Shown: one piece after another, positions 1,879 to 63,270 of the stretch
Layout: each line of letters opens with the position of its first letter
Position numbering within the stretch: the stretch's first letter is position 1
Assembly (NCBI RefSeq): GCF_000355805.1
Contig: NZ_CM001837.1
Location: forward strand, 2,655,868-2,719,867
Length of the DNA stretch: 64,000 nt
From: Dokdonia sp. PRO95
GTDB taxonomy: Bacteria; Bacteroidota; Bacteroidia; Flavobacteriales; Flavobacteriaceae
Reading direction: 5' to 3'
Translations under genes and position numbers: made by a program
The notes under the pieces: generated by a model
The model's database searches: none
What the model saw: the letters and a program-made list of their open reading frames with translations, nothing else
What the model was told of the DNA's origin: nothing

Positions 1879-1900
1879 TTACGCTTTCGCGAAAGCGTAA
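1879..1900. repeat. Dispersed TTTCGCGAAA palindrome, copy 1 (perfect 22 bp)
   Basis: TTA + CGCTTTCGCGAAAGCG + TAA is a perfect 22-bp palindrome. It lies between a terminator and the stop codon of porX. Having no T-tract, it is not a terminator itself. Confidence 0.95.
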
Positions 1901-1905
1901 CATCT

Positions 1906-3453
1906 CTATTTAGGTTCAAGCACCACAAAAGGAATCACCATCTCCTCAAGGCTTACGCCTCCATGTTGATAGGTGTTTCTGTAATAACTTACGTAATGGT
2001 TAAAATTATTAGGGTAAGCAAAAAATAAATCTCCTTTTGCAAAAATGAATGAACTACTCATATTAATAGTAGGTAAGTGTATCGTGCGAGGATCTTCGGC
2101 AGCGAGTACGTCCTTATCTTCATATGTAAGACTTCTTCCGGTTTTGTATCGCAGGTTGAGGCTTGTATTTTTGTCCCCTATAACTTTTGATGGATTTTTG
2201 ACATTAATGGTACCGTGATCTGTAGTAAGAATTAGTTTCATGCCTAACTCTTGCACCTGCTGTATCATCGTGAGGAGTGGTGAATTTTTAAACCAGCTCT
2301 CTGTGAGTGATCTATAAGCCTTGTCATTGCTAGCAAGCTCTTTAATTACCTCCATTTCCGTCTTAGAGTGCGATAGCATATCTACAAAGTTGTAAACGAC
2401 TACCGTGAGATCATTGTCTTTTTGCGATTTAAAATTATCAGCTAGTTTTTTTCCATTTTTTAAATTGGTGATTTTGTGATATTCCCAGTTTAGGTCAAGA
2501 CGTAGCCTTTTAAGTTGTGCCTCTAGAAAATCTGCTTCATGCATGTTTTTTCCTCCCTCATCTGTGTCATCAAGCCATAAGTCTGGATGCTTTTTTTTCA
2601 TTTCTTCTGGCATAAGTCCAGAAAATATAGCATTACGCGCATACTGAGTTGCTGTAGGCAAAATACTATAATAAGGTTCTTCTTCTATTTTTTTATAATG
2701 AGCATTAAGGTGTGGCTCAAAAGCCTTCCATTGGTCATAACGCATGTTATCTATAACAATGAATAGGGTAGGAGTGTCTTTTGTAAGGTGTGGTTGTACT
2801 TTGTCTTTAAATAAGGTATGAGACATTGTAGGCCCTTCGTAGCCATTGAACCAATCTGGGTAATTTTTGTCTATAAATTTACAGAACTGATTATTTGCTT
2901 CAGATTTTTGAGATTCTAAAATCTCAAACATTCCCGTATCTTCTATTCCCTCAAGTTCCATCTCCCAGTAAATAAGCTTTTGGTAAAGCTCAGACCACTC
3001 TTCAAAACTATTTACCATAGATAAATCCATAGCAATCTTGCGAAATTCTTGCTGATACGAAGAGGTAGTTTTCTGACTTATTAATCTACTATGATCAAGA
3101 TTTTTCTTTAAACTTAATAATATCTGGTTAGGATTTACGGGTTTGATAAGGTAGTCTACTATTTTAGAGCCTATTGCCTCTTCCATAATATACTCTTCCT
3201 CACTTTTTGTAATCATAACCACGGGTACATTCTCACGTTTATTCTTGATTTCGCTTAAAGTTTCTAGACCGGATAAGCCTGGCATATTTTCATCAAGAAA
3301 AATGATGTCAAAGTTTTGCTCATCTATCATTTCTACGGCTTCGGCGCCATTATCACAAGTTGTTACGCTATAATTCTTTTTCTCAAGAAATAAAATATGT
3401 GGTTTGAGTAAGTCAATTTCGTCATCTACCCAAAGTATTTGTATGTTGCTCAT
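1906..3453 (-). CDS. porX: PorX: response regulator with PglZ domain, T9SS regulator
   Basis: The 515-residue protein starts with a CheY-like receiver domain: acidic cluster D10-D11-E12, phosphoacceptor D54 (IIFLDENMPGLSG) and K104 (DYLIKPVNP). About 190 residues onward it carries a PglZ/alkaline-phosphatase-like domain (LFIVIDNMRYDQWKAF, LTTDHGT). This two-part layout is the PorX family. In Porphyromonas and Flavobacterium, PorX works with the histidine kinase PorY and the sigma factor SigP to control the type IX secretion and gliding apparatus; the PglZ part is a zinc-dependent phosphodiesterase. No partner kinase is in the window. The gene is divergent from the HD-domain gene. Confidence 0.93.
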   Translation of the reverse strand: MSNIQILWVDDEIDLLKPHILFLEKKNYSVTTCDNGAEAVEMIDEQNFDIIFLDENMPGLSGLETLSEIKNKRENVPVVMITKSEEEYIMEEAIGSKIVDYLIKPVNPNQILLSLKKNLDHSRLISQKTTSSYQQEFRKIAMDLSMVNSFEEWSELYQKLIYWEMELEGIEDTGMFEILESQKSEANNQFCKFIDKNYPDWFNGYEGPTMSHTLFKDKVQPHLTKDTPTLFIVIDNMRYDQWKAFEPHLNAHYKKIEEEPYYSILPTATQYARNAIFSGLMPEEMKKKHPDLWLDDTDEGGKNMHEADFLEAQLKRLRLDLNWEYHKITNLKNGKKLADNFKSQKDNDLTVVVYNFVDMLSHSKTEMEVIKELASNDKAYRSLTESWFKNSPLLTMIQQVQELGMKLILTTDHGTINVKNPSKVIGDKNTSLNLRYKTGRSLTYEDKDVLAAEDPRTIHLPTINMSSSFIFAKGDLFFAYPNNFNHYVSYYRNTYQHGGVSLEEMVIPFVVLEPK

Positions 3454-3509
3454 ATAATTAGTTAAGTATGTTAGTCTTCAAGAGGCCCCTAGTTTGCAAG
3501 GCGAAACCT

Positions 3510-3517
3510 TATATTTG
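3510..3517 (+). promoter_or_regulatory. Bacteroidota -7 element (TATATTTG) before the HD-domain gene
   Basis: A perfect TAnnTTTG match lies 55 nt before the preferred start at 3572. The nearest upstream TTG (3494-3496) is only 13 nt away, closer than usual, so the -33 part is doubtful. Confidence 0.5.
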
Positions 3518-3523
3518 TACGTA

Positions 3524-3545
3524 TTACGCTTTCGCGAAAGCGTAA
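3524..3545. repeat. Dispersed TTTCGCGAAA palindrome, copy 2 (perfect 22 bp)
   Basis: This is identical to copy 1 (TTA/TAA outer arms). It lies in the probable 5' UTR of the HD-domain gene. Translated in the upstream-extended frame it would read RFRES, which is not part of the protein family. Confidence 0.95.
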
Positions 3546-3571
3546 ATTATAGAAATCAAAAATTTTTAATA

Positions 3572-7242: not shown

Positions 7243-8025
7243 ATGAATCAGCCATTAGCATATGTGCACCCAGGTGCAAAAATTGCAAAGAATGTAGTTA
7301 TAGAACCATTCACAACGATACATAATAACGTTGTAATAGGTGAGGGTAGCTGGATAGGGTCTAACGTGACCATTATGGAAGGCGCGCGCATAGGGAAGAA
7401 CGTAAGTATCTTTCCTGGAGCAGTAATCTCTGCAGTGCCACAAGATAAAAAGTTTAATGACGAAGATACTGTTACCATTATAGGTGATAACACTACAATA
7501 CGTGAGTGTGTGACTATTAATCGTGGTACCTCAGACCGTATGAAAACTCAAGTAGGAAACAATTGTTGGATTATGGCATATTGCCACATTGCACATGATT
7601 GTATCGTGGGTGATAATTGTATTTTTTCTAATAACAGTACACTCGCTGGTCACATTACCGTAGGTGATCACGTAGTGCTAGCTGGGATGGCTGCAATACA
7701 GCAGTTTTGTACGATAGGGAGCCATGCTTTTGTAACTGGTGGGTCTTTAGTGCGTAAGGATGTACCTCCTTTTGTAAAGGCAGGTCGTGAGCCGTTAAGT
7801 TATGTAGGTATTAACTCTATAGGACTACGTCGTCGCGGATTTACCACAGAGAAAATTCGTGAAATACAAGATATTTTCCGCATCTTGTATCAAAAGAATT
7901 ACAATAACTCACAAGCGGTAGCTATTATAGAAGCAGAGATGGAAGCCACTCAGGAGCGAGATGAAATATTGCAATTTATACGCAACTCTCAACGTGGTAT
8001 CATGAAAGGATACTTTAACTCATAA
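7243..8025 (+). CDS. lpxA: Acyl-ACP--UDP-N-acetylglucosamine O-acyltransferase LpxA
   Basis: LpxA catalyses the first, reversible step of lipid A synthesis. The 260-residue protein is mostly hexapeptide repeats forming a left-handed beta-helix, with the catalytic His in CHIAHDCIVGDN. A helical C-terminus follows (GLRRRGFTTEKIREIQDIF), as in E. coli LpxA. It starts 1 nt after the lpxC-fabZ stop and closes the lipid A operon. The next genes follow a 179-bp gap holding two palindrome variants. Confidence 0.96.
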   Translation: MNQPLAYVHPGAKIAKNVVIEPFTTIHNNVVIGEGSWIGSNVTIMEGARIGKNVSIFPGAVISAVPQDKKFNDEDTVTIIGDNTTIRECVTINRGTSDRMKTQVGNNCWIMAYCHIAHDCIVGDNCIFSNNSTLAGHITVGDHVVLAGMAAIQQFCTIGSHAFVTGGSLVRKDVPPFVKAGREPLSYVGINSIGLRRRGFTTEKIREIQDIFRILYQKNYNNSQAVAIIEAEMEATQERDEILQFIRNSQRGIMKGYFNS

Positions 8026-8033
8026 GTTTTCTT

Positions 8034-8055
8034 TTACGCTTTCGCGAAAATTTGA
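8034..8055. repeat. Dispersed palindrome, copy 3 (one arm replaced by AATTTGA)
   Basis: The left arm is canonical (ACGCTTTCGCGAAA) but the right arm reads AATTTGA in place of GCGTAA. The same altered arm occurs at 48702-48722. Together with copy 4 it forms a long inverted repeat before efp. Confidence 0.85.
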
Positions 8056-8070
8056 CAACACGACAATCAT

Positions 8071-8094: not shown

Positions 8095-8130
8095 TGAGAA
8101 ATTCATAAAACGGAGAGATTGATAATCTTT

Positions 8131-8150
8131 TCATATTTTCGCGAAAGCGA
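8131..8150. repeat. Dispersed palindrome, copy 4 (inverted partner of copy 3)
   Basis: The core TTTCGCGAAA is at 8137-8146. Bases 8131-8149 are the reverse complement of 8037-8055 with one mismatch in 19, so copies 3 and 4 are the two ends of one inverted repeat about 75 bp apart. Confidence 0.85.
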
Positions 8151-8204
8151 GATTAACTTTTAAATAAATAAGAATTCTGTATTTGCAGATACTTAACACT
8201 ACAT

Positions 8205-11204: not shown

Positions 11205-11225
11205 AGTAAGGAAAATTAGGGTTCT

Positions 11226-11245
11226 ATGCTTTCGCGAAAGCGTAA
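11226..11245. repeat. Dispersed palindrome, copy 5
   Basis: ATGCTTTCGCGAAAGCGTAA: one mismatch in the outer arm. It lies in the sucD-fabG gap. Confidence 0.92.
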
Positions 11246-11337
11246 AGATTCAGCCTAACATTTAGACTAATTAGATCAATAAAAACAACCTGAGACAGTA
11301 ATCTTAAAATTTATCTGTCCATTCATAGCATTTATAT

Positions 11338-12146: not shown

Positions 12147-14180
12147 TTGCAAAAAGAAACATTATTACTAATTATTGGAGCTGCTATTCTCGCCTTGGGA
12201 ATAGCGGTCTTCCAGTACTTTTATAAGGCAAAATATAAGACCGGTCGGAATAAGGTTTATGGACTTATTAGGTTTTTATCTGTTTTTGGATTGCTTCTTC
12301 TTTTAATAAACCCAACCTATAAGCAGGTTACGTATGTTACTGTAAAGCCATCACTTGCGGTGGCCTTAGATAATACTTCAAGTATTAGACATTTGGGATA
12401 TGATGATGAAAGTGAAGATTTAGTATCACGCTTTCGCGAAAGCGAATCTTTAAACAACACTTTTGACGTACAGTTTTATAGTTTTGGTCAAGAATTTAAA
12501 CGTTTAGATACTTTAGATTTTAAAGAAAAGCAGACTAGTATTTCTAACGTTCTCCATAGTCTTGAGGACATTTACGGAACAGAAATAGCACCAGTAATCC
12601 TACTCACCGATGGAAATCAAACCTATGGTGAAGCTTATCAATACACTTCAAAAAACCTTAATCAGCAGATATATCCCGTAGTTTTAGGAGATACAGTTAC
12701 CTATGATGATCTCAAACTGGGGCAGGTAAACGTAAATAGATATGCGTATATCAATAACAAGTTTCCGGTAGAGATTTTTGCCTCTTACAACGGTAACAAT
12801 ACTGTAAACTCGCAATTAACGGTAAGCTCTGGAGGTAAAGTACTGCATTCTGAGCGAGTTGCTTTTAGTCCACAAAGGAAATCACAGGTTTTTAATTTAT
12901 TACTACCCGCAACCAGCGTAGGAGTGAGGCAATATAGTGTGCAGCTAACCGCTACTGCATCAGAAAAAAACACAAAAAACAATAGTAAGAATTTTGCAAT
13001 TGAAGTTATTGATCAAAAGACAAATGTTCTTATTGTGAGTAACATTGTGCATCCAGATGTGGGTATGCTCAAAAAAAGTATAGAGAGTAACAGATTGCGC
13101 ACGGTTACTTTTTCAAATGCAGTAGAAAGCATAAATAAGCTCAATGATTACGAGTTAGTAATATTGTACCAGCCAGATGCTAGTTTTAAAAACGTGTACG
13201 AGCAACTTGAAGGATTATCAAAAAATAGTATTACAATCGGTGGAGCAAATACAGAGTGGAATGCTGTAAATACCTTCCAGAATACCATTAATCAAGAGGT
13301 TACTGGACAGCAGGAAGAAGTCCAAGGAGCGCTCAATGTGAATTTTTCTGCTTTTGTGATAGAAGATATAGGATTCTCAGACTTTCCGCCGTTAAAGACA
13401 AGCTTTGGAGATGTTAACTTTAAGACAGAAGTAGATGTCGCACTGACCCAAACTATAGGATCTTTAAATACAGAAAATCCACTTATAGCAACTACTGATA
13501 CAAATGGACATCGTGAAGTTTTTATTTTAGGTGAAGGATTATGGAGGTGGCGAGCACAAAGTTTTATAGATAATAGCAGCTTTGAAAAATTTGATAATCT
13601 TATTGATAACCTTGTACAGTATGCCGCGTCTAATAAGAAAAAAAGTCGCCTTAATATAGACTATGATTCTTTCTATTATGGTAACGGTGATGTTACTTTA
13701 TACGCTCAATATTTTGATAAAAACTACACTTTTGATTCACGAGCGCGTCTATCAATACGTGTAATTCATGCGGATACTAAAAAAGTGACAGACATCCCTT
13801 TGTTACTTAAAAAGAACACGTACCAAGTAGCTATGAACAATCTCGAGCCTGGTAACTATAAGTTTACTGTATCTGTTATAGATCAAGGCCTAGCTCGTTC
13901 CGGAAGTTTTACGATTATTCCTTTTGATATAGAGCAACAATTTTTAAATGCAAATGTAACAGACCTACGTGCTTTAGCGTCTAATACAGAAGCAGCTCTT
14001 TATACGAGTGCAATGGGAGATCAGCTTATAGACAATCTCGTGCGAGATACTCGATACAAACCGGTACAGAAAAGCACAGAAAAAATTGTACCTTTAATTG
14101 ACTGGAAATGGTTGTTATTTATGATAGCTTCACTACTTTCTATTGAGTGGTTTATGCGCAAGTATAACGGACTTACTTAA
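12147..14180 (+). CDS. VWA-domain-like membrane protein
   Basis: This 677-residue protein begins (TTG 12147) directly with a membrane segment (ETLLLIIGAAILALGIAVF). A second follows at about 40-55 (FLSVFGLLLLLIN) and a third at the C-terminus (WLLFMIASLLSIEWFM). Between them lies a large extracytoplasmic region that starts with a VWA-like fold: a MIDAS-type D-N-T-S-S (VALDNTSSIRH) and LLTDGNQTYG. It resembles the BatA/BatB-type or glutamine-amidotransferase-like membrane proteins of Bacteroidota; its function is unknown. Palindrome copy 6 lies in the VWA region and encodes SRFRESES. Confidence 0.72.
   Translation: MQKETLLLIIGAAILALGIAVFQYFYKAKYKTGRNKVYGLIRFLSVFGLLLLLINPTYKQVTYVTVKPSLAVALDNTSSIRHLGYDDESEDLVSRFRESESLNNTFDVQFYSFGQEFKRLDTLDFKEKQTSISNVLHSLEDIYGTEIAPVILLTDGNQTYGEAYQYTSKNLNQQIYPVVLGDTVTYDDLKLGQVNVNRYAYINNKFPVEIFASYNGNNTVNSQLTVSSGGKVLHSERVAFSPQRKSQVFNLLLPATSVGVRQYSVQLTATASEKNTKNNSKNFAIEVIDQKTNVLIVSNIVHPDVGMLKKSIESNRLRTVTFSNAVESINKLNDYELVILYQPDASFKNVYEQLEGLSKNSITIGGANTEWNAVNTFQNTINQEVTGQQEEVQGALNVNFSAFVIEDIGFSDFPPLKTSFGDVNFKTEVDVALTQTIGSLNTENPLIATTDTNGHREVFILGEGLWRWRAQSFIDNSSFEKFDNLIDNLVQYAASNKKKSRLNIDYDSFYYGNGDVTLYAQYFDKNYTFDSRARLSIRVIHADTKKVTDIPLLLKKNTYQVAMNNLEPGNYKFTVSVIDQGLARSGSFTIIPFDIEQQFLNANVTDLRALASNTEAALYTSAMGDQLIDNLVRDTRYKPVQKSTEKIVPLIDWKWLLFMIASLLSIEWFMRKYNGLT
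12428..12445. repeat. Dispersed palindrome, copy 6 (inside the VWA gene)
   Basis: ACGCTTTCGCGAAAGCGA, read as RFRES in the VWA-like protein. Confidence 0.92.
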
Positions 14181-15016: not shown

Positions 15017-15050
15017 AATACAACATAAAACTATAAGAAAGAGTTAAGAA

Positions 15051-15070
15051 TACGCTTTCGCGAAAGCTTA
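15051..15070. repeat. Dispersed palindrome, copy 7
   Basis: TACGCTTTCGCGAAAGCTTA, with one decayed position in the right arm. It lies directly before the hairpin at 15075. Confidence 0.92.
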
Positions 15071-15074
15071 TATC

Positions 15075-15119
15075 TTTACAATCCACGCGAATTCACGTGT
15101 GGATTGTAAAGATTTTTTT
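15075..15119 (+). terminator. Strong hairpin with T-tract ending exactly at the next start codon
   Basis: TTTACAATCCAC (15075-15086) and GTGGATTGTAAA (15099-15110) form a perfect 12-bp stem, followed by GATTTTTTT up to 15119. It is a good terminator for the prohibitin-like gene. It abuts the ATG at 15120, so a promoter for that gene must lie upstream of the hairpin or inside it. Confidence 0.8.
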
Positions 15120-18096: not shown

Positions 18097-19380
18097 ATGA
18101 ATAAGATTTATAATCCAGAAAGAAGTGAGTGGGCAGAAATTTTAAAAAGACCTACTCAAACTGTAGATGATATAGAAGCCACCGTTACCGATATTTTTAA
18201 GGAAGTAAAGGAAAAAGGAGATACTGCGGTAGCAAAGTACACAAGCATCTTTGATAATGTGACTCTTGAAAGCACTGCAGTGACTGATACAGAAATAGAG
18301 GAAGCGCAAGAGCTTATATCTACCGAGTTAAAGGAAGCCATACAACTTGCAAAAGGTAATATTGAACGTTTTCACACAGCTCAAAAAACAGAGAGAGTAG
18401 CTATTACTACTACAGAAGGTGTAGATTGCTGGCAAGAAAAAAGGCCTATTCAAAAAGTGGGTCTTTATATACCGGGAGGTACAGCGCCATTATTTTCTAC
18501 TATCTTAATGCTTGCAACGCCAGCAAATATCGCTGGTTGTAAAGAGATAGTATTATGTACACCACCAGATAAAGAAGGAAAGGTAAACCCTGCCATTCTT
18601 TATACAGCAAAGCTGAGCGGAGTTACAAAAATATTTAAAGTAGGAGGTATTCAGGCTATTGCTGCGATGACCTTTGGTACAGAGAGCGTTCCTCAAGTTT
18701 ATAAAATATTTGGACCAGGTAATCAGTTTGTGACTGTTGCAAAGCAGCTTGCTACAAAGCACGGTGTAGCTATAGATATGCCAGCAGGCCCATCAGAATT
18801 ACTTGTTGTGGCAGATGATGCTGCTCAGGCAAGTTTTGTAGCTTCAGACTTATTAAGTCAGGCAGAGCACGGTGTTGATAGTCAGGTGATCTTGGTTTCT
18901 ACATCAAAGGATTTGATAGACGAGGTAGAAAAAGAAGTAGAAGAGCAGATGAGTACGCTTTCGCGAAAGCGTATTGCTGAAAAAGCTATTGATAATAGCA
19001 AGCTCATTTATGTAAAAGATGATGAGACGGCACTCGCGCTGATAGATGAATACGGTCCAGAACACTTTATAGTTTGCACCTCAAATGATGACTACTATGT
19101 AGATAATATAGGGAATGCGGGGTCTGTTTTTATAGGCAACTATACGCCAGAAAGCGCTGGAGATTATGCATCTGGTACAAACCACACCTTACCTACAAAC
19201 GGTTATGCTAAGCAGTACAGCGGTGTAAATCTAGATAGTTTTATGAAGTCTATGACATTTCAAAAAATATCTGAAACTGGAATAAAAAATATAGGTCGTG
19301 CTATAGAACTTATGGCAGAGGCAGAGGGTCTTGATGCTCATAAAAATGCGGTAACTCTTAGACTTAACGCAATAAAATAA
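18097..19380 (+). CDS. hisD: Histidinol dehydrogenase
   Basis: HisD oxidises histidinol to histidine in two NAD-dependent steps with zinc. The 427-residue protein has KVGLYIPGGTAPLFSTILM, FGPGNQFVTVAKQLA, and the catalytic Glu-His pair in YGPEHFIVC. Zinc-site residues in LLSQAEHG and near the C-terminus are present. Palindrome copy 8 encodes TLSRKR at about 290. Relatives have a similar-length LxRKxIAEKAI segment there, so the copy appears to replace rather than add sequence. Confidence 0.97.
   Translation: MNKIYNPERSEWAEILKRPTQTVDDIEATVTDIFKEVKEKGDTAVAKYTSIFDNVTLESTAVTDTEIEEAQELISTELKEAIQLAKGNIERFHTAQKTERVAITTTEGVDCWQEKRPIQKVGLYIPGGTAPLFSTILMLATPANIAGCKEIVLCTPPDKEGKVNPAILYTAKLSGVTKIFKVGGIQAIAAMTFGTESVPQVYKIFGPGNQFVTVAKQLATKHGVAIDMPAGPSELLVVADDAAQASFVASDLLSQAEHGVDSQVILVSTSKDLIDEVEKEVEEQMSTLSRKRIAEKAIDNSKLIYVKDDETALALIDEYGPEHFIVCTSNDDYYVDNIGNAGSVFIGNYTPESAGDYASGTNHTLPTNGYAKQYSGVNLDSFMKSMTFQKISETGIKNIGRAIELMAEAEGLDAHKNAVTLRLNAIK
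18954..18973. repeat. Dispersed palindrome, copy 8 (inside hisD)
   Basis: TACGCTTTCGCGAAAGCGTA, a perfect 20-bp copy read as TLSRKR in HisD. Confidence 0.95.
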
Positions 19381-20459: not shown

Positions 20460-21595
20460 TGGCAAAAAAAGTACTTTTTATCGACCGCGATGGTACAATG
20501 ATTAAAGAAACGGTAGATGAACAAATCGATGCGTTTGAAAAAATGATTTTTTACCCTAAGTGTTTTACTTGGTTAGGTAAGATTGCTCAAGAGCTCGATT
20601 ATGAGTTAGTGATGATTACAAATCAAGATGGTCTAGGTACAGATTCTTTTCCAGAAGATACATTCTGGCCAGTGCACAACTTCATTATGAAGTCTTTTGA
20701 AAATGAAGGTGTTGTTTTTGATAATGTATTTTTAGATAGAACTTTTCCGCACGAAAATAAAGACACTAGAAAGCCTGGGACCGGTTTACTTACACAATAC
20801 TTTTCTGAGGAGTATGATCTCAAAAACTCTTTTGTAATAGGTGATAGACTTACAGATATGCAACTAGCGACAAATCTGGGAGCTAAAGGAATCTATATCA
20901 ATGATAACACAAACCTCGGTACTGGTGAAATTACCATCTCTGAAGATGAGCTCAATAAAGACATTGCGCTAGAGACAAACGACTGGCAAAAAATATACGA
21001 GTTTTTAAAATTAGAAAGTCGTGTTGCTACGCTTACGCGAAAAACTAATGAGACAGACATAAACATAACCCTTAACCTAGATGGTACGGGTAAATCTAAC
21101 ATAGATACAGGTCTAGCTTTCTTTGACCATATGCTTGACCAGATAGCGCGTCACGGGCAAATGGACCTTGATATTCAAGTAAAAGGAGACCTAGAAGTAG
21201 ATGAGCATCACACTATAGAAGACACGGCAATCGCACTAGGAGAAGTGTTTGCCATTGCTTTAGGTAATAAATTAGGAATAGAGCGTTACGGTTTTTGCTT
21301 GCCTATGGATGACTGTCTTGCACAAGTTGCTATAGATTTTGGCGGTAGAAACTGGCTCGTATGGGAAGCAGATTTTAACCGTGAGATGATAGGTAAAATG
21401 CCTACGGAGATGTTTTACCACTTCTTTAAATCATTTACAGATGGTGCAAAGGCAAACCTAAATATCAAAGCCGAAGGAACAAACGAGCACCACAAGATTG
21501 AAGCTATCTTTAAGGCATTTGCAAAAGCGATTAAAGTAGCTGTAAAGCGTGATGCAGATAAAATGATTCTTCCATCTACAAAAGGAATGTTATAA
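20459..21595 (+). CDS. hisB: Bifunctional histidinol-phosphatase / imidazoleglycerol-phosphate dehydratase
   Basis: Residues 1 to about 165 are a HAD phosphatase ([29 protein letters not shown]). Residues from about 190 are the manganese-dependent dehydratase ([43 protein letters not shown]). The two halves catalyse steps seven and nine of the pathway. A decayed palindrome lies in the linker between them and encodes TLTRKT. The gene overlaps both hisC and hisH by 1 nt. Confidence 0.97.
21028..21043. repeat. Decayed dispersed palindrome (hisB linker)
   Basis: TACGCTTACGCGAAAA: the core differs by one base (CTTACGCG for CTTTCGCG) and the right arm is lost. It lies at the junction of the HisB domains. 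Confidence 0.7.
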
Positions 21596-22176
21596 TGAAA
21601 ATTGTGATCATTAATTATGGCGCTGGAAACATCCAGAGCATAAAATTTGCGATAGAGCGTCTTGGTTATCAAGCCGTTTTAAGTGATAGTGAAGAAGAAA
21701 TACGTAGTGCAGATAAAGTCATTTTTCCTGGAGTAGGAGAGGCGAGTAGCGCTATGAGTAAATTACGAGAGACTGGTCTTGATAAAGTGATTCCTACACT
21801 CACACAGCCTGTGCTGGGTATCTGTCTGGGTATGCAATTAATGTGTACAGGTTCAGAAGAAGGAGATACTATAGGACTTGATATTTTTAATGTAGATGTA
21901 GTACGCTTTCGCGAAAGCGTAAAAGTCCCACAAATACAGTGGAACACCATTAACAATCTATCATCACCACTTTTTAATCAAGTAGCCGAAGATTCTTTTA
22001 TATATATGGTGCACAGTTTTTATGCTCCCGTAGTAGAAGATACAATTGCGACTACCACGTACGGACTTCCTTACAGTAGTGCTCTTGCCAAAAATAATTT
22101 TTATGGAACTCAGTTCCACCCAGAAAAAAGTAGCGCTGTAGGAGAGCAAATACTTAAAAACTTTTTAGAATTATGA
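21595..22176 (+). CDS. hisH: Imidazole glycerol phosphate synthase, glutamine amidotransferase subunit
   Basis: HisH frees ammonia from glutamine and passes it to HisF. The 193-residue class I amidotransferase has the nucleophile Cys in [10 protein letters not shown] and the His-Glu pair in QFHPEKSS. The oxyanion segment is IINYGAGN. Palindrome copy 10 encodes [10 protein letters not shown] in the middle of the protein without an obvious change of length. Its partner hisF is not in this window. Confidence 0.96.
21902..21921. repeat. Dispersed palindrome, copy 10 (inside hisH)
   Basis: TACGCTTTCGCGAAAGCGTA, perfect, read as RFRESV. Confidence 0.95.
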
Positions 22177-40696: not shown

Positions 40697-40716
40697 ACGC
40701 TTTCGCGAAAGCGTAA
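40697..40716. repeat. Dispersed palindrome, copy 17
   Basis: ACGCTTTCGCGAAAGCGTAA in the divergent region between the BNR-protein and fasciclin genes. Confidence 0.94.
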
Positions 40717-40776
40717 TTGTATCCCTAATAAGGTCTTATGAAATAATTAACAAGACATTGGTATAACATTAGCTTT

Positions 40777-41507: not shown

Positions 41508-42629
41508 ATGAGAAAACAACAAAATAGGAGCGGTTTTGTATTCAAAACCTATCACGCTCCGCAAAAACCCCTTTTTGATCAGCTGCTTGATATATTTCAA
41601 GAGCTCATCACCCACACCTCTGGTGATTTTGACGAGGCGATGGACTGGCTAAAAGAGCTTGATAAAGAATATAAACTCACAAATGATGAGTATACCTTAG
41701 ACGACTTTGTACAAGAGCTTAAAGACAAAGGCTACATACGAGAAGAAGTTAAGCCAGACGGTAATAACGGCACGGCTATCACAGAAAAGACAGAGCGCGC
41801 CATACGTAAGAGAGCCCTAGATCAAATTTTTGGTAAGCTTAAAAAGAGCTCTCAGGGTAACCATAGGTCAAAACTTAACGGTAGAGGAGATGAGCATACT
41901 GGTGATTATCGCGAGTATCGTTTTGGTGATGGGCTAGAGCGTATCTCTATGACAGAAAGTTTGCGTAATGCCCAAATTAATAATGGTGCAGAAGATTTCC
42001 GCTTACGCGAAAGCGACCTCGTGGTAGAAGAAACCCACTTTAAGGCACAGATGAGTACCGTACTTATGATAGATATATCGCATAGTATGATACTCTATGG
42101 AGAAGATCGTATTACTCCAGCCAAAAAGGTAGCGATGGCACTTGCACAGCTTATCACAACGAGGTATCCAAAAGACTCTTTAGATATAATTGTATATGGG
42201 AACGATGCCTGGCCTATTAAAATTAAGGATTTACCGTATTTACAAGTGGGGCCTTATCACACTAACACAGTAGCAGGTCTTAATCTCGCTATGGATATCT
42301 TGAGACGTAAGCGTAACTCAAATAAACAGATCTTTAATATTACAGATGGTAAGCCATCTTGTATAAAGCTTAAAGACGGGCGCTACTATAAAAACCCAAA
42401 TGGACTAGACGAGTATATTGTAAACAAGTGTTACAGTATGGCTAGACAAGCACGTAAGCTTCATATACCTATCACAACATTTATGATTGCAAATGATCCT
42501 TACCTGCAACAGTTTGTAGATAATTTTACTGAGGCAAACCAAGGAAAAGCGTTCTATACAGGACTGCAAGGTCTAGGGGAGATGATCTTTCAAGATTATG
42601 AAAGCAACAGAAAGAAAAGAATAAAATAA
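41508..42629 (+). CDS. VWA-domain protein paired with a MoxR-type ATPase
   Basis: The 373-residue protein has a helical N-terminal half and, from about 180, a VWA domain with a full MIDAS (D-I-S-H-S in VLMIDISHSMI, then the Thr of YHTNTVAG and the Asp of NITDGKPS). It lacks a signal peptide and is cytoplasmic. The AAA+ gene follows after 57 nt. Such MoxR/VWA pairs work as chaperones that insert metal or remodel complexes; the client is unknown. A decayed palindrome encodes RLRES just before the VWA domain. Confidence 0.86.
   Translation: MRKQQNRSGFVFKTYHAPQKPLFDQLLDIFQELITHTSGDFDEAMDWLKELDKEYKLTNDEYTLDDFVQELKDKGYIREEVKPDGNNGTAITEKTERAIRKRALDQIFGKLKKSSQGNHRSKLNGRGDEHTGDYREYRFGDGLERISMTESLRNAQINNGAEDFRLRESDLVVEETHFKAQMSTVLMIDISHSMILYGEDRITPAKKVAMALAQLITTRYPKDSLDIIVYGNDAWPIKIKDLPYLQVGPYHTNTVAGLNLAMDILRRKRNSNKQIFNITDGKPSCIKLKDGRYYKNPNGLDEYIVNKCYSMARQARKLHIPITTFMIANDPYLQQFVDNFTEANQGKAFYTGLQGLGEMIFQDYESNRKKRIK
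42000..42017. repeat. Decayed dispersed palindrome (inside the VWA gene)
   Basis: CGCTTACGCGAAAGCGAC: one core base is changed (CTTACGCG), as in the copies at 21028 and 63253. Read as RLRES. Confidence 0.75.
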
Positions 42630-44744: not shown

Positions 44745-45554
44745 TTAGTCTTCAAAGATAAGTTGTCCCGTAAATAGCACTTCTACCTCGACTAAAGGTG
44801 GTTCCTTTAAAGCAATTACATCACCTGTGGCGTGTATGGTGCCTTTGAGACTGTTTATGGGGTTAAACACCATCGTTGCGGCGCTTGTGTGTCTAAACTG
44901 GATATCATCCACTAGAAAGTCTCTCCCATCAAACTGTGGAAACTCATCACTAAAGTTGATATTCATTTGATCTGCTCTACCAGATATTTTAAAGTTGCTA
45001 GAACCATTTGCAGATATTGTTAATGACGATACATCAAGATTCAGATAGATGTTCCCACTTTTATTAGGATCGTCTATATTGATACCGTTTGGGCTTGTAT
45101 TACTCCATATCGTGAGAGATGGGTAGGTCAGAAGTCCTTCACTTTCTATGTCAAAGGAGGATGCTTGCCTTATAAAATTAATGTTAGGGGACGTTATTGT
45201 AACTAACGTTCGTCCATACTCTCTTAAAATATTGCAACTATTATTATTTTGTAATACGAGTGTTTCCTCGGTCACTTCAAAATATAGGTCTGATACAAGA
45301 TTTTCGCCTGTTTCAATAACTACTTGTTGTTCAGATCCTTGTTTTAGGATCACACGAATGTCATCTTCCATTTGGATTTTTGTGAACACAGGTAATTCAA
45401 TTTCATAAGTGATGATATCACCATCCGTTTGTAAGCAATCATTTGCATTTTCTGTATCACAAGAGAATAGCAGTGCGATATGAAGGAGTAGGATGAGGTT
45501 GCGCTTTCGCGAAAGCGTACTTAAAAAATGTACTATTTGTCTTTGTAAACTCAT
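44745..45554 (-). CDS. Head-GIN-domain lipoprotein
   Basis: A 269-residue protein with the putative auto-transporter adhesin head-GIN fold (beta solenoid; FTKIQMEDDIRVILKQGSEQ, LTISANGSSNFKISGRADQM). A signal with lipobox LLFSC follows a basic N-region, TLSRKRN, which is encoded by palindrome copy 19. The ATG overlaps the stop of the upstream deacylase gene (ATGA), which supports this start although the N-region is long. The product is probably on the outer membrane surface; function unknown. Confidence 0.8.
   Translation of the reverse strand: MSLQRQIVHFLSTLSRKRNLILLLHIALLFSCDTENANDCLQTDGDIITYEIELPVFTKIQMEDDIRVILKQGSEQQVVIETGENLVSDLYFEVTEETLVLQNNNSCNILREYGRTLVTITSPNINFIRQASSFDIESEGLLTYPSLTIWSNTSPNGINIDDPNKSGNIYLNLDVSSLTISANGSSNFKISGRADQMNINFSDEFPQFDGRDFLVDDIQFRHTSAATMVFNPINSLKGTIHATGDVIALKEPPLVEVEVLFTGQLIFED
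45501..45519. repeat. Dispersed palindrome, copy 19 (signal-peptide region)
   Basis: GCGCTTTCGCGAAAGCGTA, read on the minus strand as TLSRKR at the positive end of a signal peptide. Confidence 0.93.
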
Positions 45555-48041: not shown

Positions 48042-48701
48042 ATGGATCAAGAGCTTCTAGCATATTTACAATCATTTCTTACAGAAAGACGTGTTCAATT
48101 ATTTGATAAGGTGCTCAAAGAGCGCACAAATCATTTTACCGTTGCGGTAGAGGATGTATATCAATTACATAATACTAGTGCTGTAATACGCAGCTGTGAG
48201 TCATTTGGGGTGCAAGAGTTGCATGTGATTGAGGAGGTTAATGTAAAGAGGATAGATCGTGAGATTGCAATGGGGGCTCAAAAGTGGGTAGATGTACAAC
48301 GTCACAGTAGTGCTAAGCAATGTATACATAGCTTAAAAGAGCAAGGTTATAAAATTGTTGCTACATCACCTCATAAAGATGCTCACCGTCTAGAAGATTT
48401 TGATGTTACCCAGAAGTCGGCAATTTTCTTTGGTCGCGAGACAGAGGGGCTTAGTGAGGCTGTACTTGATATGGCAGACGACTTTATTTATATTCCTATG
48501 GTGGGATTTACAGAAAGTCTCAATATCTCTGTCTCTGCAGCAATAACCCTGCAGCATATTATGACAAAACTTAAGCAATCAAACATGGGCTGGCAGTTTA
48601 CAGAACAAGAGCTCTTTGATAAAAAACTAGCGTGGACGCGCAAGATGATTAAGGATGTGGAGGGGATTGAGCAGCGATTTCTTGAGGCAAGAGGGGAGTG
48701 A
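48042..48701 (+). CDS. tRNA/rRNA 2'-O-methyltransferase (TrmH/SpoU family)
   Basis: The 219-residue SPOUT methylase has motif 1 NTSAVIRSCESFGVQELHV, motif 2 AIFFGRETEGLS and motif 3 IPMVGFTESLNISVSAA. The C-terminal extension (WTRKMIKDVEGIEQRFL) is like TrmH, which methylates G18 of tRNA. Exact target is inferred from similarity. It has its own promoter, divergent from the sirtuin gene. Confidence 0.88.
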   Translation: MDQELLAYLQSFLTERRVQLFDKVLKERTNHFTVAVEDVYQLHNTSAVIRSCESFGVQELHVIEEVNVKRIDREIAMGAQKWVDVQRHSSAKQCIHSLKEQGYKIVATSPHKDAHRLEDFDVTQKSAIFFGRETEGLSEAVLDMADDFIYIPMVGFTESLNISVSAAITLQHIMTKLKQSNMGWQFTEQELFDKKLAWTRKMIKDVEGIEQRFLEARGE

Positions 48702-48725
48702 TACGCTTTCGCGAAAATTTGAATT
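48702..48725. repeat. Dispersed palindrome, copy 20 (AATTTGA variant)
   Basis: The left arm is TACGCTTTCGCGAAA and the right arm AATTTGAATTA, the same altered arm as at 8034-8055. Confidence 0.88.
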
Positions 48726-48802
48726 ACAAATACATTAGCTGTCAATAAGTGTAAAGTTGATCTATTTTTATAGAACAACAGAGAAATTTAAAACATCATA
48801 GT

Positions 48803-49438
48803 ATGAAACTTACTGAATCACTAAAAGAGCTAGCAGATAATAGCGTAAAACGTCACCCTGGCGCTGCTCAGGATATAATGAGAAAAGCCATTGAAGATCT
48901 CAAGGCTACAAATATGTTGGAGCATGCGGTAAAGACAGGAGATCAATTTCCAGACTTTGAGTTGCCAAATGCACAAGGTGAAACTGTTAGTCTGAGTGAG
49001 CAATTACAAAAAGGTAAGGTAGTGCTTACTTTTTATAGAGGTGGCTGGTGTCCTTACTGTAATTTAGAACTTAAAGCTTTTCAGGAAGTATTGCCGCAAA
49101 TTAAAGAGAAAGGTGCAACGCTTATTGCAATCACACCAGAAACACCAGATAATTCTTTATCTACTAAGGAGAAAAATCAGCTAGATTTTGAAGTCCTTAC
49201 CAGTGAAAATAACGAATTAGCAAGATCACTCAATTTGGTTTTTAAACTTCCAGAGGCGCTTGCAGAATTATATGGAAAATTTGGTATTGATCTTTTAGAG
49301 AGTCAAGGTAATGATGAAAATGAGCTTCCTATAGCGGCAACATATATTATTGAGCAAAGTGGAAAGATTTCTTATCACTTTCTTGCAGAAGATTATAAGC
49401 TTAGAGCAGACCCAGAATTAGTGTTAGCTGCATTGTAG
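48803..49438 (+). CDS. Peroxiredoxin-like protein (AhpC/TSA family)
   Basis: The 211-residue thioredoxin-fold protein has C83 and C86 in YRGGWCPYCNLELKAFQ. The GGWCPYC motif marks the bacterial peroxiredoxin-like group that has a CxxC in place of the single peroxidatic Cys of typical AhpC. It probably reduces hydroperoxides in the cytoplasm; there is no signal peptide. It is monocistronic. Confidence 0.88.
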   Translation: MKLTESLKELADNSVKRHPGAAQDIMRKAIEDLKATNMLEHAVKTGDQFPDFELPNAQGETVSLSEQLQKGKVVLTFYRGGWCPYCNLELKAFQEVLPQIKEKGATLIAITPETPDNSLSTKEKNQLDFEVLTSENNELARSLNLVFKLPEALAELYGKFGIDLLESQGNDENELPIAATYIIEQSGKISYHFLAEDYKLRADPELVLAAL

Positions 49439-49442
49439 AGTC

Positions 49443-49461
49443 ACGTTTTCGCGAAAGCGTA
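49443..49461. repeat. Dispersed palindrome, copy 21
   Basis: ACGTTTTCGCGAAAGCGTA, with one changed base in the left arm, 5 bp after the peroxiredoxin stop. Confidence 0.92.
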
Positions 49462-49482
49462 GTAAATACACATCGCAGTATA

Positions 49483-52519: not shown

Positions 52520-53098
52520 TTATTTCTGATTATGGAGAAATTCTAGAAACGCTGCAACAGCAAGGCCTCTGTGGCTTATTTTTCCTTTGAGAGATGGTGC
52601 CATTTGAGCAAATGTAGCGTTATAGCCCTCAGGTTTGAAGATAGGGTCGTAGCCAAAACCTCCATCACCGTGACGTTCTTTAGTAATATGACCTCTGCAT
52701 ATTCCTGTAAAAGTTTCTGTTTTGTTTGCTTTCGCGAAAGCGATAACTGTTTTAAACTGTGCTCCACGTTCCTGCTTTGTAGCAAGATTGATCAAGAGCT
52801 TGTTCATGTTATCTGAGTCATTTTTTTGCTCACCAGCATATCTAGCCGAATAAACTCCAGGCGCGCCGTCTAGTGCATCTACTTCAAGACCTGTGTCATC
52901 TGCAAAGCAATCATACCCATAATTTGAAAGGACATAATTTGCTTTAAGCAAGGCATTGCCTTCTATAGTGTCGGCGTCCTCTATAATTTCTTCTGTACAC
53001 CCTATGTCTGTTAAAGAGAGTAAGGTAATATGGTCGGGAACTAAAGCTTGAACTTCGCGAAGCTTATTACTGTTATGAGTGGCAAAAACAAGTTTCAT
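52520..53098 (-). CDS. rdgB: Non-canonical purine NTP pyrophosphatase (RdgB/HAM1)
   Basis: RdgB removes ITP, dITP and XTP from the nucleotide pool. The 192-residue protein has FATHNSNKLREVQAL at the start, the DDTGLEVDALDGAPGVYSAR loop and the C-terminal GDGGFGYDPIFKPEG with KGKISHRGLA. Palindrome copy 22 encodes IAFAKAN in the middle strand region. Its start overlaps the stop of the membrane-protein gene by 1 nt. Confidence 0.96.
   Translation of the reverse strand: MKLVFATHNSNKLREVQALVPDHITLLSLTDIGCTEEIIEDADTIEGNALLKANYVLSNYGYDCFADDTGLEVDALDGAPGVYSARYAGEQKNDSDNMNKLLINLATKQERGAQFKTVIAFAKANKTETFTGICRGHITKERHGDGGFGYDPIFKPEGYNATFAQMAPSLKGKISHRGLAVAAFLEFLHNQK
52727..52744. repeat. Dispersed palindrome, copy 22 (inside rdgB)
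   Basis: TGCTTTCGCGAAAGCGAT, read on the minus strand as IAFAKA. Confidence 0.92.
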
Positions 53099-54424: not shown

Positions 54425-55284
54425 ATGATTTCAGAAGCACAATTTCAGATTGAGATAGAGGGTATAATTGCAAATGCTATACGAGAGGATGTAGGCGATG
54501 GGGACCATAGTTCGCTAGCATGTATACCAGCCAGCGCCACTGGAAAAGCAAAACTACTTGTAAAGGATGAAGGTATTCTTGCAGGTTGCGCTTTCGCGAA
54601 AGCGGTATTTGCCTACGTAGACCCATCATTACAAGTTGAGGATGTCTTAACAGATGGAGACGCTGTAAAATATGGAGATATAGCATTTTATGTCACTGGA
54701 TCAAGCCAAAGCATTCTAAAAGCTGAACGATTAGTACTGAATGCTATGCAGCGTATGAGTGCTATAGCAACAAAGACCAAGTTTTTTGTAAACCTCTTGG
54801 AAGGAACAGATACTAAAATTCTAGATACAAGGAAAACTACACCAGGAATAAGAGCACTAGAGAAGTGGGCTGTAAAAATAGGTGGTGGTGAGAATCATCG
54901 TTTTGCGTTGTATGATATGATTATGCTTAAAGATAATCACATCGATTTTGCAGGTGGGGTAACAAAAGCTATTCTTAAAACAGTTGATTATCTAAAGGAA
55001 GAGCAACGAGATCTCAAGATTATAGTAGAAGCTAGAAGTCTAGAAGAGATTAAAGAAATACTTGAAAATCATGAGCATGTATATCGTATTCTAATAGATA
55101 ACTTTAATTATGAAGATACTCGTACTGCAGTTGCATTGATAGGTGATAAATGTCTTACAGAATCCTCTGGTGGTATTAATGAGGAGACGATACGTGATTA
55201 CGCTCTTTGCGGTGTAGATTATATTTCTAGTGGAGCGCTCACGCACTCTGTTTACAACTTAGATCTTAGTCTGAAAGCAGTTTA

Positions 55285-57388: not shown

Positions 57389-57422
57389 ATTGAAAGCCGT
57401 TTCTTTGAGAAGCGGCTTTTTT
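57389..57422 (+). terminator. Terminator after the DUF2147 gene
   Basis: AAAGCCGTTTC and GAAGCGGCTTT pair with one G-U, followed by TTTTT. Confidence 0.88.
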
Positions 57423-57423
57423 T

Positions 57424-57443
57424 ATGCTTTCGCGAAAGCGTAT
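57424..57443. repeat. Dispersed palindrome, copy 24
   Basis: ATGCTTTCGCGAAAGCGTAT, directly after the T-tract of the DUF2147 terminator. Confidence 0.93.
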
Positions 57444-57500
57444 GTACAAACATACTATTCTTTTTATCTACGATTAGCTCTTACGTTTGATCTGCTTCTG

Positions 57501-62413: not shown

Positions 62414-62416
62414 GTT

Positions 62417-62713
62417 ATGGCATCTTTACAACAACAAGCAAAAGGAAAGAAGGACGGAGATATCAGATATCTTACGCCTCTTAACATTGAAACTAACAAA
62501 GCAAAGAAGTACTGTCGCTTTAAGAAGTCTGGTATCAAGTATGTAGATTACAAAGATGCAGACTGGCTAGCAGGTTTTGTAAACGAGCAAGGTAAATTGT
62601 TACCACGTCGTCTTACAGGAACTTCTTTAAAGTACCAACGTAAAGTGTCTGTAGCTGTAAAAAGAGCTCGTCACCTTGCATTGATGCCTTATGTAACTGA
62701 TTTATACAAATAG
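62417..62713 (+). CDS. rpsR: 30S ribosomal protein S18
   Basis: The 98-residue protein has the S18 core ([52 protein letters not shown]) after a short N-terminal extension usual in Bacteroidota. It forms a heterodimer with S6 on the platform of the small subunit. Confidence 0.98.
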
Positions 62714-62727
62714 AAACTAGATAACAG

Positions 62728-63180
62728 ATGGAACTTATATTAAAGAAGGACGTTGAGAATCTAGGATTTGCAGACGATCTAGTAGAAGTAAAAAACGGAT
62801 ACGGTAGAAACTACCTAATCCCTAACGGTCATGCTGTACTTGCTACGCCTAGCGCAAAGAAAGTACTTGCAGAAAACCTTAAGCAACGCGCTCACAAAGA
62901 ACAAAAATTTGTGGACGATGCACAGAAGCAAGCAGATAAACTTAACGGACTTGAAGTTAAGATTAGTGCAAAAACTGGTGATGGAGACAAACTTTTTGGA
63001 TCTATTAACAACGCAGACGTTGCAGAATACCTAGCAAAAGAAGGTATCTCTATCGATAAGAAATTTATTTCTATCGCTGGAAATACTGTAAAGCGCTTAG
63101 GTAACTATGAAGCAAAAGTACGTTTCCACAAGAATGTGGTAGCTACACTTCCTTTTGACGTAGTAGCAGAGGCTAACTAA
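62728..63180 (+). CDS. rplI: 50S ribosomal protein L9
   Basis: The 150-residue protein has the two-lobe L9 shape: the N-terminal domain MELILKKDVENLGFADDLVE with NGYGRNYLIPNGHAV, a connecting helix and the C-terminal domain (SAKTGDGDKLFGSINNADVA). It stabilises the L1 stalk base and reading frame. It is followed by a strong terminator. Confidence 0.98.
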   Translation: MELILKKDVENLGFADDLVEVKNGYGRNYLIPNGHAVLATPSAKKVLAENLKQRAHKEQKFVDDAQKQADKLNGLEVKISAKTGDGDKLFGSINNADVAEYLAKEGISIDKKFISIAGNTVKRLGNYEAKVRFHKNVVATLPFDVVAEAN

Positions 63181-63196
63181 GTCATTAGATAGTATA

Positions 63197-63235
63197 TAAA
63201 AAGCCGTTCTTACAACCGTAAGGACGGCTTTTTTA
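63197..63235 (+). terminator. Terminator of the rpsF-rpsR-rplI operon
   Basis: AAAGCCGTTCTTAC and GTAAGGACGGCTTT pair (one G-U) around AACC, followed by TTTT. Confidence 0.92.
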
Positions 63236-63252
63236 TGAAATACAATTTTTAA

Positions 63253-63270
63253 TACGCTTACGCGAAAAAG
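63253..63270. repeat. Decayed dispersed palindrome (CTTACGCG type)
   Basis: TACGCTTACGCGAAAAAG, with the same core change and lost right arm as the copy in hisB, 9 bp before the DUF6495 start. Confidence 0.72.

What the first reader, a model, noticed from the sequence alone, without database searches (positions are those of the whole stretch)
1879..63270. Highly iterated palindrome TTTCGCGAAA spread over the whole window
I count 22 exact cores TTTCGCGAAA, most extended to ACGCTTTCGCGAAAGCGT, plus 5 decayed copies (21028, 42000, 60917, 61931, 63253). In AT-rich DNA a given 10-mer with four G/C is expected well below once in 64 kb. The copies are not adjacent to a transposase, have no T-tract and show no fixed distance to genes. 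In style they resemble HIP1 of cyanobacteria, uptake sequences, or the TTTC...GAAA sites of ParB/Noc proteins. Symmetry is kept even where both arms change (GTGCGC...GCGCAC at 26819), which suggests selection on the palindrome itself.
Basis: partly seen in the sequence, partly recalled or inferred. Interest (0 to 1): 0.88.

Follow-up and report, generated by a model that had tools for sequence, protein, structure and literature searches.

The report
Genome-wide palindromic DNA mark in Dokdonia
A small group of marine bacteria, and some phages, carry the same short mirror-image DNA mark about once every three thousand letters, spaced out and apparently kept there by selection, which points to an unknown protein that needs one such mark in every stretch of DNA.

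Summary
The window (a Dokdonia chromosome) has 22 exact TTTCGCGAAA (0.09 expected); the genome has 1018 against 10 for the reversed word. The word is expanded in 18 of 18 genomes searched of this genus and in two other genera, and in no other genome among 397 of the family or 395 of the class. The palindrome is only the centre of a roughly 52-bp element: on both sides a ~15-nt tract is poor in G on the outward strand, in genes and between them. The arms vary independently, so it is read as DNA, not as a hairpin. Sites are conserved (105 of 118 against 30% of all 10-mers) and exclude each other within 1 kb (5 pairs against 41 expected). Phage contigs carry the whole element. RAYT transposases, an extra ParB, a shared C5 methyltransferase, type IV pili and terminators do not explain it. 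Best reading: a two-sided, protein-read landing site serving 1-2 kb of neighbouring DNA, perhaps Chi-like; the reader protein is unknown. New variant of the highly iterated motif kind.

The parts
1864..1915 (.). element 1: core 1885-1894, arms ttacgc/gcgtaa
3509..3560 (.). element 2: core 3530-3539; at the 5' end of ORF 3494-4795 if its TTG start is right
8019..8070 (.). element 3: core 8040-8049, left arm intact, right arm lost
8116..8167 (.). element 4: core 8137-8146, right arm GCGA, left arm lost; 97 bp from element 3
11209..11260 (.). element 5: core 11230-11239
12411..12462 (.). element 6: core 12432-12441, inside ORF 12147-14180, read FRES
15035..15086 (.). element 7: core 15056-15065
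18938..18989 (.). element 8: core 18959-18968, inside hisD, read LSRK; core present at the same place in 5 of 5 other Dokdonia loci
21886..21937 (.). element 9: core 21907-21916, inside a glutamine amidotransferase gene (hisH by its place, inferred), read FRES
26804..26855 (.). element 10: core 26825-26834 (GTGCGC...GCGCAC arms)
29472..29523 (.). element 11: core 29493-29502, inside ABC transporter gene, read AFAK
31185..31236 (.). element 12: core 31206-31215, inside nusB, read AFAK
35217..35268 (.). element 13: core 35238-35247
36606..36657 (.). element 14: core 36627-36636
38326..38377 (.). element 15: core 38347-38356, inside a Sortilin/BNR-repeat gene, read LSRK
40680..40731 (.). element 16: core 40701-40710
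45484..45535 (.). element 17: core 45505-45514, inside DUF2807 gene, read LSRK
48686..48737 (.). element 18: core 48707-48716, right arm lost
49426..49477 (.). element 19: core 49447-49456
52709..52760 (.). element 20: core 52730-52739, inside Ham1-family gene, read AFAK
54571..54622 (.). element 21: core 54592-54601, inside a quinolinate phosphoribosyltransferase gene, read AFAK
57407..57458 (.). element 22: core 57428-57437
21033..21042 (.). one-substitution variant TTACGCGAAA; intact TTTCGCGAAA at what reads (by flanking letters) as the same place in four of five other Dokdonia loci (L002, L003, L004, L011; not L001)
42003..42012 (.). variant TTACGCGAAA with both GC arms
63258..63267 (.). 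variant TTACGCGAAA

Best explanation
Shown: a two-fold-symmetric DNA element of about 52 bp (palindromic core GCTTTCGCGAAAGC, softer outer arms GTAA, then ~15 nt on each side that are poor in G on the outward strand) recurs about every 3.2 kb in the own chromosome, is conserved well above background, is mostly kept at least ~1 kb from its neighbours, and is also present on phage DNA. Where orthologous places could be compared, most differences are base substitutions. Inferred: a symmetric (probably dimeric) clade-specific protein reads the double-stranded core, and a strand-specific process then acts outward on both sides. The inward-running strands, which would be the 3'-ended strands if DNA were opened or resected at the site, are G/T-rich and C-poor. 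The favoured mechanism is a bidirectional, Chi-like landing site for DNA processing (loading of a helicase-nuclease or recombinase, or marking DNA as self). One site serves the next 1-2 kb, so a second one nearby adds nothing, and any DNA that must live in this cell, phage included, gains from carrying some. The reader protein and the biochemical step are not identified.
For: Genome-wide count against control. Arms vary about independently in four sets (339, 98, 57 and 42 sites; sites too near the ends of stretches left out of the profiles), and there is no arm complementarity beyond the core (0.289 against 0.305 shuffled): read as dsDNA half-sites, not as hairpin. Outward G 0.048/0.075/0.093 at +6-9/+10-15/+16-21 against 0.162 at +31-50, not seen at ten other words or at CGCG or TCGCGA elsewhere, and present in coding and intergenic sites and in both gene orientations. 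Conservation: 105 of 118 aligned sites against 30% of all 10-mers and 184 of 465 sampled CGCG-containing 10-mers. Exclusion under 1 kb: 5 pairs against 40.7, 3 against 28.6, 2 against 28.5. Lineage-specific sites avoid shared ones within 1 kb: 3 against 21. Own-only and relative-only sites lie near each other: 11 against 4.1 within 2 kb. Flat density round the chromosome. Full element in phage contigs with terminase, portal, head, primase and baseplate genes.
Against: No reader protein was found and no gene was shown to co-occur with the element. Known Chi sites are short and not palindromic (recalled), far shorter than this element. The flank skew could be a shape or contact preference of a wrapping protein rather than a sign of strand processing. 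The nearness of own-only to relative-only sites rests on small numbers (23 and 20): strict null P = 0.023 within 2 kb, 0.08 within 1.5 kb, 0.23 within 1 kb; in a second relative 8 against 4.7 within 2 kb, P 0.08. The phages' hosts are unknown and the phages may be prophages that inherited sites from a host.
Confidence: 0.37

Rival explanations
1. DNA uptake sequence: an import receptor prefers DNA with the element, and biased uptake plus recombination drives it to high copy. Saturation within one imported fragment gives the spacing.
For: Change by substitution, intergenic preference, high conservation, about 1000 copies and genus dialects (+4 is T in Dokdonia, G/A in g11) fit what is written of DUS/USS (passages of PMC2397512, PMC1939737, PMC7811141). 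Riemerella columbina, placed with Flavobacteriaceae by its paper, was tested for preference for its own DNA under a heading that says it prefers it (listing and passages).
Against: No PilB/GspE-type ATPase above cut-off in the own genome, and in only 3 of the 10 carriers tested. Known uptake sequences are not palindromes (PMC1939737), and 23% of one set of H. influenzae USS lie within 100 bp of another (PMC7811141), whereas here close pairs are excluded. Phage contigs carry the element with flanks.
Confidence: 0.25
2. Nucleoid or topology site: an abundant dimeric nucleoid protein, or a type II topoisomerase, binds regularly spaced sites to shape or relax each few kb of chromosome.
For: Even spacing with ~1 kb exclusion, flat density round the chromosome, symmetric ~52-bp extent, a weak ~9-10-base periodicity of T in the flanks whose significance was not tested.
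Against: Little preference for convergent gene ends: 1.9 against 1.3-1.5 sites per kb of intergenic DNA (from the counts). A G-against-C strand asymmetry over 15 consecutive positions is not expected of a plain dsDNA contact. Carriage by phages needs a further reason.
Confidence: 0.2
3. HIP1-like mark: a solitary methyltransferase and a mismatch-repair ratchet create and keep the palindrome.
For: Highly iterated palindrome that changes by substitution, with saturation at about 1 kb, as postulated for HIP1 (PMC4390886 abstract and passages).
Against: C5 methyltransferase genes were not found in 7 of 12 Dokdonia, in G281 (g11) or in G230 (g210). TCGCGA outside the 10-mer is at chance (100 against 91.9) and CGCG as a whole is not enriched (1614 against 1683.5). 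A methyltransferase does not explain 15-nt G-poor flanks. N6/N4 methyltransferases were not tested.
Confidence: 0.1
4. RNA-level or mobile element: bidirectional terminator hairpin, or REP/MITE repeats spread by a transposase.
For: The sequence of the full 18-mer allows a 7-bp stem. Three of 12 and three of 10 losses between two genomes fall in alignment gaps that I did not resolve.
Against: No compensatory change between arms; 160 of 339 sites lie inside genes, and intergenic sites follow the length of each intergenic type; no match to an Rfam family in the window; no Y1_Tnp in 4 of 4 Dokdonia or in g210; 9 of 12 and 7 of 10 losses align without a gap.
Confidence: 0.03

Closest known systems
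HIP1 of cyanobacteria (GCGATCGC)
   Same: very high copy palindrome throughout the chromosome, in genes and between them, changing by substitution
   Different: different word; about 52-bp element with strand-asymmetric flanks; no common C5 methyltransferase; five-fold intergenic preference; carried by phages
Uptake sequences USS/DUS (Pasteurellaceae, Neisseriaceae)
   Same: about 1000-2000 copies, permissive positions, conserved, dialects, extended flanks in USS
   Different: palindromic and two-sided; close pairs excluded; no type IV pilus ATPase above cut-off in the own genome; present on phages
Chi sites of RecBCD/AddAB
   Same: similar copy number (1008 perfect Chi in E. coli, table in PMC1939737); works-like argument only: one site protects or stimulates a stretch, DNA of any origin may gain from it
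   Different: Chi is short and one-directional (recalled); this is a long palindrome; no enzyme shown
ParB parS / Noc NBS (TTTC...GAAA)
   Same: TTTC/GAAA half-sites (recalled)
   Different: centre shorter by 2 bp (against recalled consensus); about 1000 copies; no extra ParB in the own genome; flat density round the chromosome
REP/REPIN elements
   Same: short palindromic repeats, often between genes
   Different: no RAYT in the Dokdonia tested; arms do not covary; nearly half of the copies inside genes

Membership tests
HIP1 / HIP | highly iterated palindrome over the whole genome | tested here: met
   1018 against 10 control
HIP1 / HIP | solitary methyltransferase for the core in all carriers | tested here: inconclusive
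   C5 type not found in 9 of 16 carriers tested; N6/N4 types not searched
HIP1 / HIP | base methylation of the core | not testable with these tools
   needs long reads
USS/DUS uptake sequence | directs DNA uptake | not testable with these tools
   needs competition assay
USS/DUS uptake sequence | type IV pilus / T2SS-type machinery in the carrier | tested here: not met
   own genome only 19.7 bits against cut-off 24.9; 3 of 10 carriers over cut-off
USS/DUS uptake sequence | non-palindromic | tested here: not met
ParB/Noc sites | a Noc-like ParB paralogue in carriers | tested here: not met
   one ParB_N match in the own genome; one in 6 of 7 carriers tested, two in G010
REP/RAYT | RAYT (Y1_Tnp) gene in the genome | tested here: not met
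   0 of 4 Dokdonia, 0 of 1 g210; present in 2 of 2 g11
Intrinsic terminator | hairpin kept by compensatory change, at gene ends | tested here: not met
Chi | stops or alters a RecBCD/AddAB-type enzyme | not testable with these tools
   needs biochemistry
Chi | short, one-directional word | tested here: not met
   palindromic core with ~52-bp extent

The most novel reading that the evidence does not exclude
A new class of DNA mark: a bidirectional, ~52-bp, strand-asymmetric site that an unknown clade-specific protein requires about once per 1-4 kb on every DNA molecule in the cell. It is held at even spacing by loss and replacement, and is copied by phages that infect the clade.
Probability: 0.35. 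Interest if true: 0.88.

Novelty: new variant of a known kind. Interest (0 to 1): 0.74.

Why it matters
Why bacteria keep thousands of copies of one short word (HIP1, uptake sequences) is an old open question. This case gives sharp, testable constraints: two-sided strand asymmetry, a ~1 kb exclusion zone, signs that lost sites are replaced nearby, and copies on phages, in a genus (Dokdonia) with cultured strains. Finding the reader protein would decide between self-marking, repair, chromosome shape and DNA import.

Tried and rejected
RNA hairpin or terminator: rejected by independent arms, no complementarity in the flanks and no clear gene-end preference, and no Rfam match in the window. REP/RAYT: no Y1_Tnp in the four Dokdonia or the one g210 genome tested. 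Extra ParB/Noc: none in the own genome. C5 methyltransferase: sporadic. Type IV pilus uptake: ATPase not found above cut-off in the own genome. Coding coincidence: 22 of the 23 sites printed for 13 Flavobacterium loci recur at two places downstream of hisD; this does not explain Dokdonia. Local hypermutation as the cause of the flank skew: flank divergence is about background in coding sites, but somewhat above it in the 26 intergenic site alignments (identity 0.63-0.73 at +4..+7 and about 0.75 further out, against 0.79), so it is not supported but not excluded. Literature: no report of the motif in Bacteroidetes among the papers listed; the Dokdonia PRO95 genome paper has no 'palindrom' or 'motif' in its text. 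Named phages and plasmids: two and three records, of other hosts, with chance-like E-values. rpoB tree: g210 sits beside Dokdonia; g11 on a long branch; one origin neither shown nor excluded. Names of g11 and g210 could not be obtained.
Full report
WHAT IS THERE. The window holds 22 exact TTTCGCGAAA against 0.09 expected. It is part of a 3,305,093-bp single-contig genome. HisD of the window is 99% identical to that of an uncultured Dokdonia, and the next three best hits are labelled Dokdonia too. The whole genome has 1018 copies; the same word read backwards has 10. In a 1.36-Mb sample of the genome 410 copies were seen against 1.26 expected from a second-order Markov model. One-substitution forms are few (83 against 45 expected for all 15 classes together); only changes of the third T are clearly enriched (TTACGCGAAA 23 against 3.4, TTGCGCGAAA 18 against 2.9, TTCCGCGAAA 7 against 1.4).

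WHO HAS IT. In a search of 59 genomes, all 18 of the genus (own plus 17) carry 481-1195 copies, with little tie to genome size (2.6-5.5 Mb); of the other 41, one (G027, genus g11) has 595 and 40 have 0-12. Of 397 genomes drawn from the family, six exceed 34 copies: two of this genus (1018, 1107), three of genus g11 (595, 700, 648) and one of genus g210 (559). Of 395 genomes drawn from the class, only the own one exceeds 30. The 14-mer GCTTTCGCGAAAGC has 408-905 copies in nine carriers and none read backwards. Named genomes: five labelled Dokdonia have 700-1107, twelve others 0-21; one locus asked for (L005) was not held. By size and count these five are probably genomes already counted. The rpoB tree of 30 genomes puts g210 beside Dokdonia (100/99) and leaves g11 on a long branch; a single origin has weak support (52/41) and is not excluded.

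ANATOMY. Aligning sites of the own genome (339 in 1.14 Mb), of a relative (G436, 98), of g11 (57) and of g210 (42), leaving out of the profiles those too near the end of a stretch, gives the same plan: core TTTCGCGAAA; then G, C, G (0.90, 0.92, 0.80 in the own genome); then T (Dokdonia) or G/A (g11); then A, A; then a tract in which G is rare on the strand that runs outward. In the own genome (408 sites) outward G is 0.048, 0.075 and 0.093 at +6-9, +10-15 and +16-21, back to 0.143 and 0.162 at +22-30 and +31-50. The tract is weaker in the GC-richer g210 and about half as marked at 20 one-substitution copies TT[ACG]CGCGAAA (G 0.12-0.13). CGCG elsewhere (1201 places), TCGCGA elsewhere (100) and ten other words show nothing of the kind (two of the ten words have fewer than ten places). 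The skew is alike in coding and intergenic sites and upstream and downstream of the site within genes, so neither transcription nor codon use makes it. The result is two-fold symmetric: inward-running strands are G/T-rich and C-poor on both sides.

READ AS DNA, NOT AS A HAIRPIN. If a hairpin mattered, a change in one arm should be matched in the other. In the own genome joint deviations occur about as often as expected from independence (+2: 1 against 2.3; +3: 14 against 13.1; +4: 45 against 36.0; +5: 39 against 35.7; +6: 38 against 45.8) and the two changes are hardly more alike than expected (+3: 7 against 6.1; +4: 18 against 16.7; +5: 16 against 14.2; +6: 20 against 18.5). Beyond the core the arms are slightly less complementary than shuffled arms (0.289 against 0.305 over +7..+21). 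At +1 both arms never deviate together (0 against 3.1). This fits a symmetric protein that reads two half-sites.

WHERE IT SITS. With a simple gene caller of my own, 179 of 339 sites lie between genes although 89% of the DNA is coding (about 36 expected); the intergenic sites follow the amount of each intergenic type (30 in +-, 40 in -+, 51 in ++, 56 in --, 2 undetermined), so no promoter or terminator role is seen. Inside genes it is read in all three frames, AFAK 91, LSRK 41, FRES 28, and 99 of 160 sites lie in the 5' half. In the window it lies within hisD, a HisH-like amidotransferase gene, nusB, Ham1 and a quinolinate phosphoribosyltransferase gene among others. Density is flat round the chromosome, 2.5-3.7 per 10 kb in 16 bins of sampled stretches.

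SPACING. Sites exclude each other: pairs closer than 1 kb number 5 against 40.7 in a contiguous 424 kb (null keeps the coding/intergenic split), 3 against 28.6 in the first 350 kb of the own genome and 2 against 28.5 in 350 kb of D. sinensis (G438; uniform null). Beyond about 1.5 kb no depletion is seen. This differs from H. influenzae USS, of which 23% of one set lie within 100 bp of another (PMC7811141, passages).

EVOLUTION. In blocks aligned to G436 (83% identity) 105 of 118 sites are unchanged, against 30% of all 10-mers and 184 of 465 CGCG-containing 10-mers (a one-in-seven sample). Over 67 site alignments to five relatives, identity of the core positions is 0.84-0.94 against 0.79 at 40-60 bases from the centre; the flanks are near background in coding sites and somewhat below it in intergenic ones. 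In a site-by-site comparison with G436, 9 of 12 own sites lost there and 7 of 10 of its sites lost here align without a gap; five of the 9 differ at 5-8 bases and may be replaced or misaligned stretches; three gap cases in each direction were not resolved. Window 21033 (TTACGCGAAA) is intact at what reads as the same place in four of five other Dokdonia loci. Counting anything within 200 bp as the same site, 109 sites are shared, 23 own-only and 20 relative-only; the last two classes come within 1 kb of a shared site 3 times against 21 expected. Own-only and relative-only sites lie within 2 kb of each other 11 times against 4.1 (P 0.003; strict null 10 against 4.8, P 0.023); within 1 kb the excess is not significant (4 against 2.1, P 0.16; strict P 0.23). 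A looser class definition gave stronger numbers (17 against 5.8 within 2 kb). A second relative, G438, with 19 own and 15 projected sites, gave 8 against 4.7 within 2 kb, P 0.08. I read this as upkeep of local density by loss and replacement; it needs more genomes.

PHAGES. In 20 AT-rich loci that I chose because their contigs have more than one hit, 29 distinct sites show the same flanks: outward G 0.069, 0.092, 0.098 at +6-9, +10-15, +16-21 against 0.178 at +22-40. A scan for the palindrome with C-free left and G-free right flanks found 24 stretches in 16 contigs; the pieces held of these contigs have 46 sites (33 distinct) in 265 kb against 1 of the reversed word. That set was selected on +6..+13, so only +16-21 (0.096 against 0.177 at +22-30) is independent evidence. 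Ten frames from six such loci match terminase, portal, major head, DnaB, primase, baseplate and transposase families, or families of unknown function. Hosts are unknown. No named phage or plasmid record of the clade was found.

WHAT IT IS NOT. One ParB_N match in the own genome, as in 18 of 23 non-carriers tested. No Y1_Tnp in four Dokdonia and one g210 genome, though both g11 genomes have some. C5 methyltransferases in only 7 of 16 carriers tested. PilB/GspE-type ATPase above cut-off in 3 of 10 carriers and not in the own genome. I had no genome searches left for N6/N4 methyltransferases or for a gene profile.

INTERPRETATION. The facts ask for (i) a symmetric reader, (ii) something strand-specific on each side, (iii) a local range of about 1-2 kb with saturation and (iv) a benefit to phage DNA too. 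A bidirectional landing site for DNA processing, Chi-like in logic, meets all four; that recombinases prefer G/T-rich strands is recalled, not tested. An uptake sequence meets (iii) and could meet (i), but needs a route other than type IV pili and an account of the phages. A nucleoid or topoisomerase site meets (i) and (iii). A HIP1-like methylation ratchet meets (iii) only in part. The general statement, a selected, protein-read, locally acting DNA mark, is much safer (about 0.85) than any one mechanism.

LITERATURE. Seen: abstract, outline and passages of PMC4390886; passages of PMC7811141, PMC1939737, PMC2397512, PMC7965970, PMC3587595. Searches for the motif or for such an element in Bacteroidetes or Dokdonia listed no paper that by title or abstract reports it; they list at most 20 papers each (one search found 199 that hold one of the words, 20 listed), and the library lacks most subscription journals.

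Noticed in passing
window 8040-8049 and 8137-8146: The only close pair in the window (97 bp) consists of two half-armed sites, each with its good arm pointing away from the other. The pair may act as one.
   Followed up: no
G001-G017: Copy number stays near 500-1200 although genome size runs from 2.6 to 5.5 Mb, as if the sites sit mainly in the shared genome.
   Followed up: no
own genome 2784228-2808526 and 2922997-2937056 (L307, L308, L313): The two longest site-free stretches in a contiguous 424 kb are low in GC (0.345, 0.323). Of ten frames scanned there, one stretch shows TonB receptor, ABC, sensor and thiamin genes, the other polysaccharide export and an aminotransferase.
   Followed up: partly
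viral contigs such as IMGVR 3300036669_000050 and 3300038696_000259: Phage contigs with four or five elements in the pieces held; their hosts are not known.
   Followed up: partly
Flavobacterium loci near hisD (13 loci from L010 to L065): TTTCGCGAAA recurs at two fixed places downstream of hisD (22 of 23 sites printed). In 20 Flavobacterium loci AAAAGTACTTTT (20 of 20) and TCGTTTAAACGA (16 of 20) are other recurring palindromes.
   Followed up: no
own genome 2994546-2996633: Two C5 methyltransferase matches stand side by side in one open frame. Most of the other Dokdonia tested have no match.
   Followed up: no
window 1906-3453: A response regulator fused to a PglZ domain, as in PorX of type IX secretion (name recalled).
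   Followed up: no
own genome, sites inside genes: Sites inside genes lean to the 5' half (99 of 160), with 16 within 60 nt of the called start and 3 within 60 nt of the end; miscalled starts may add to this.
   Followed up: no
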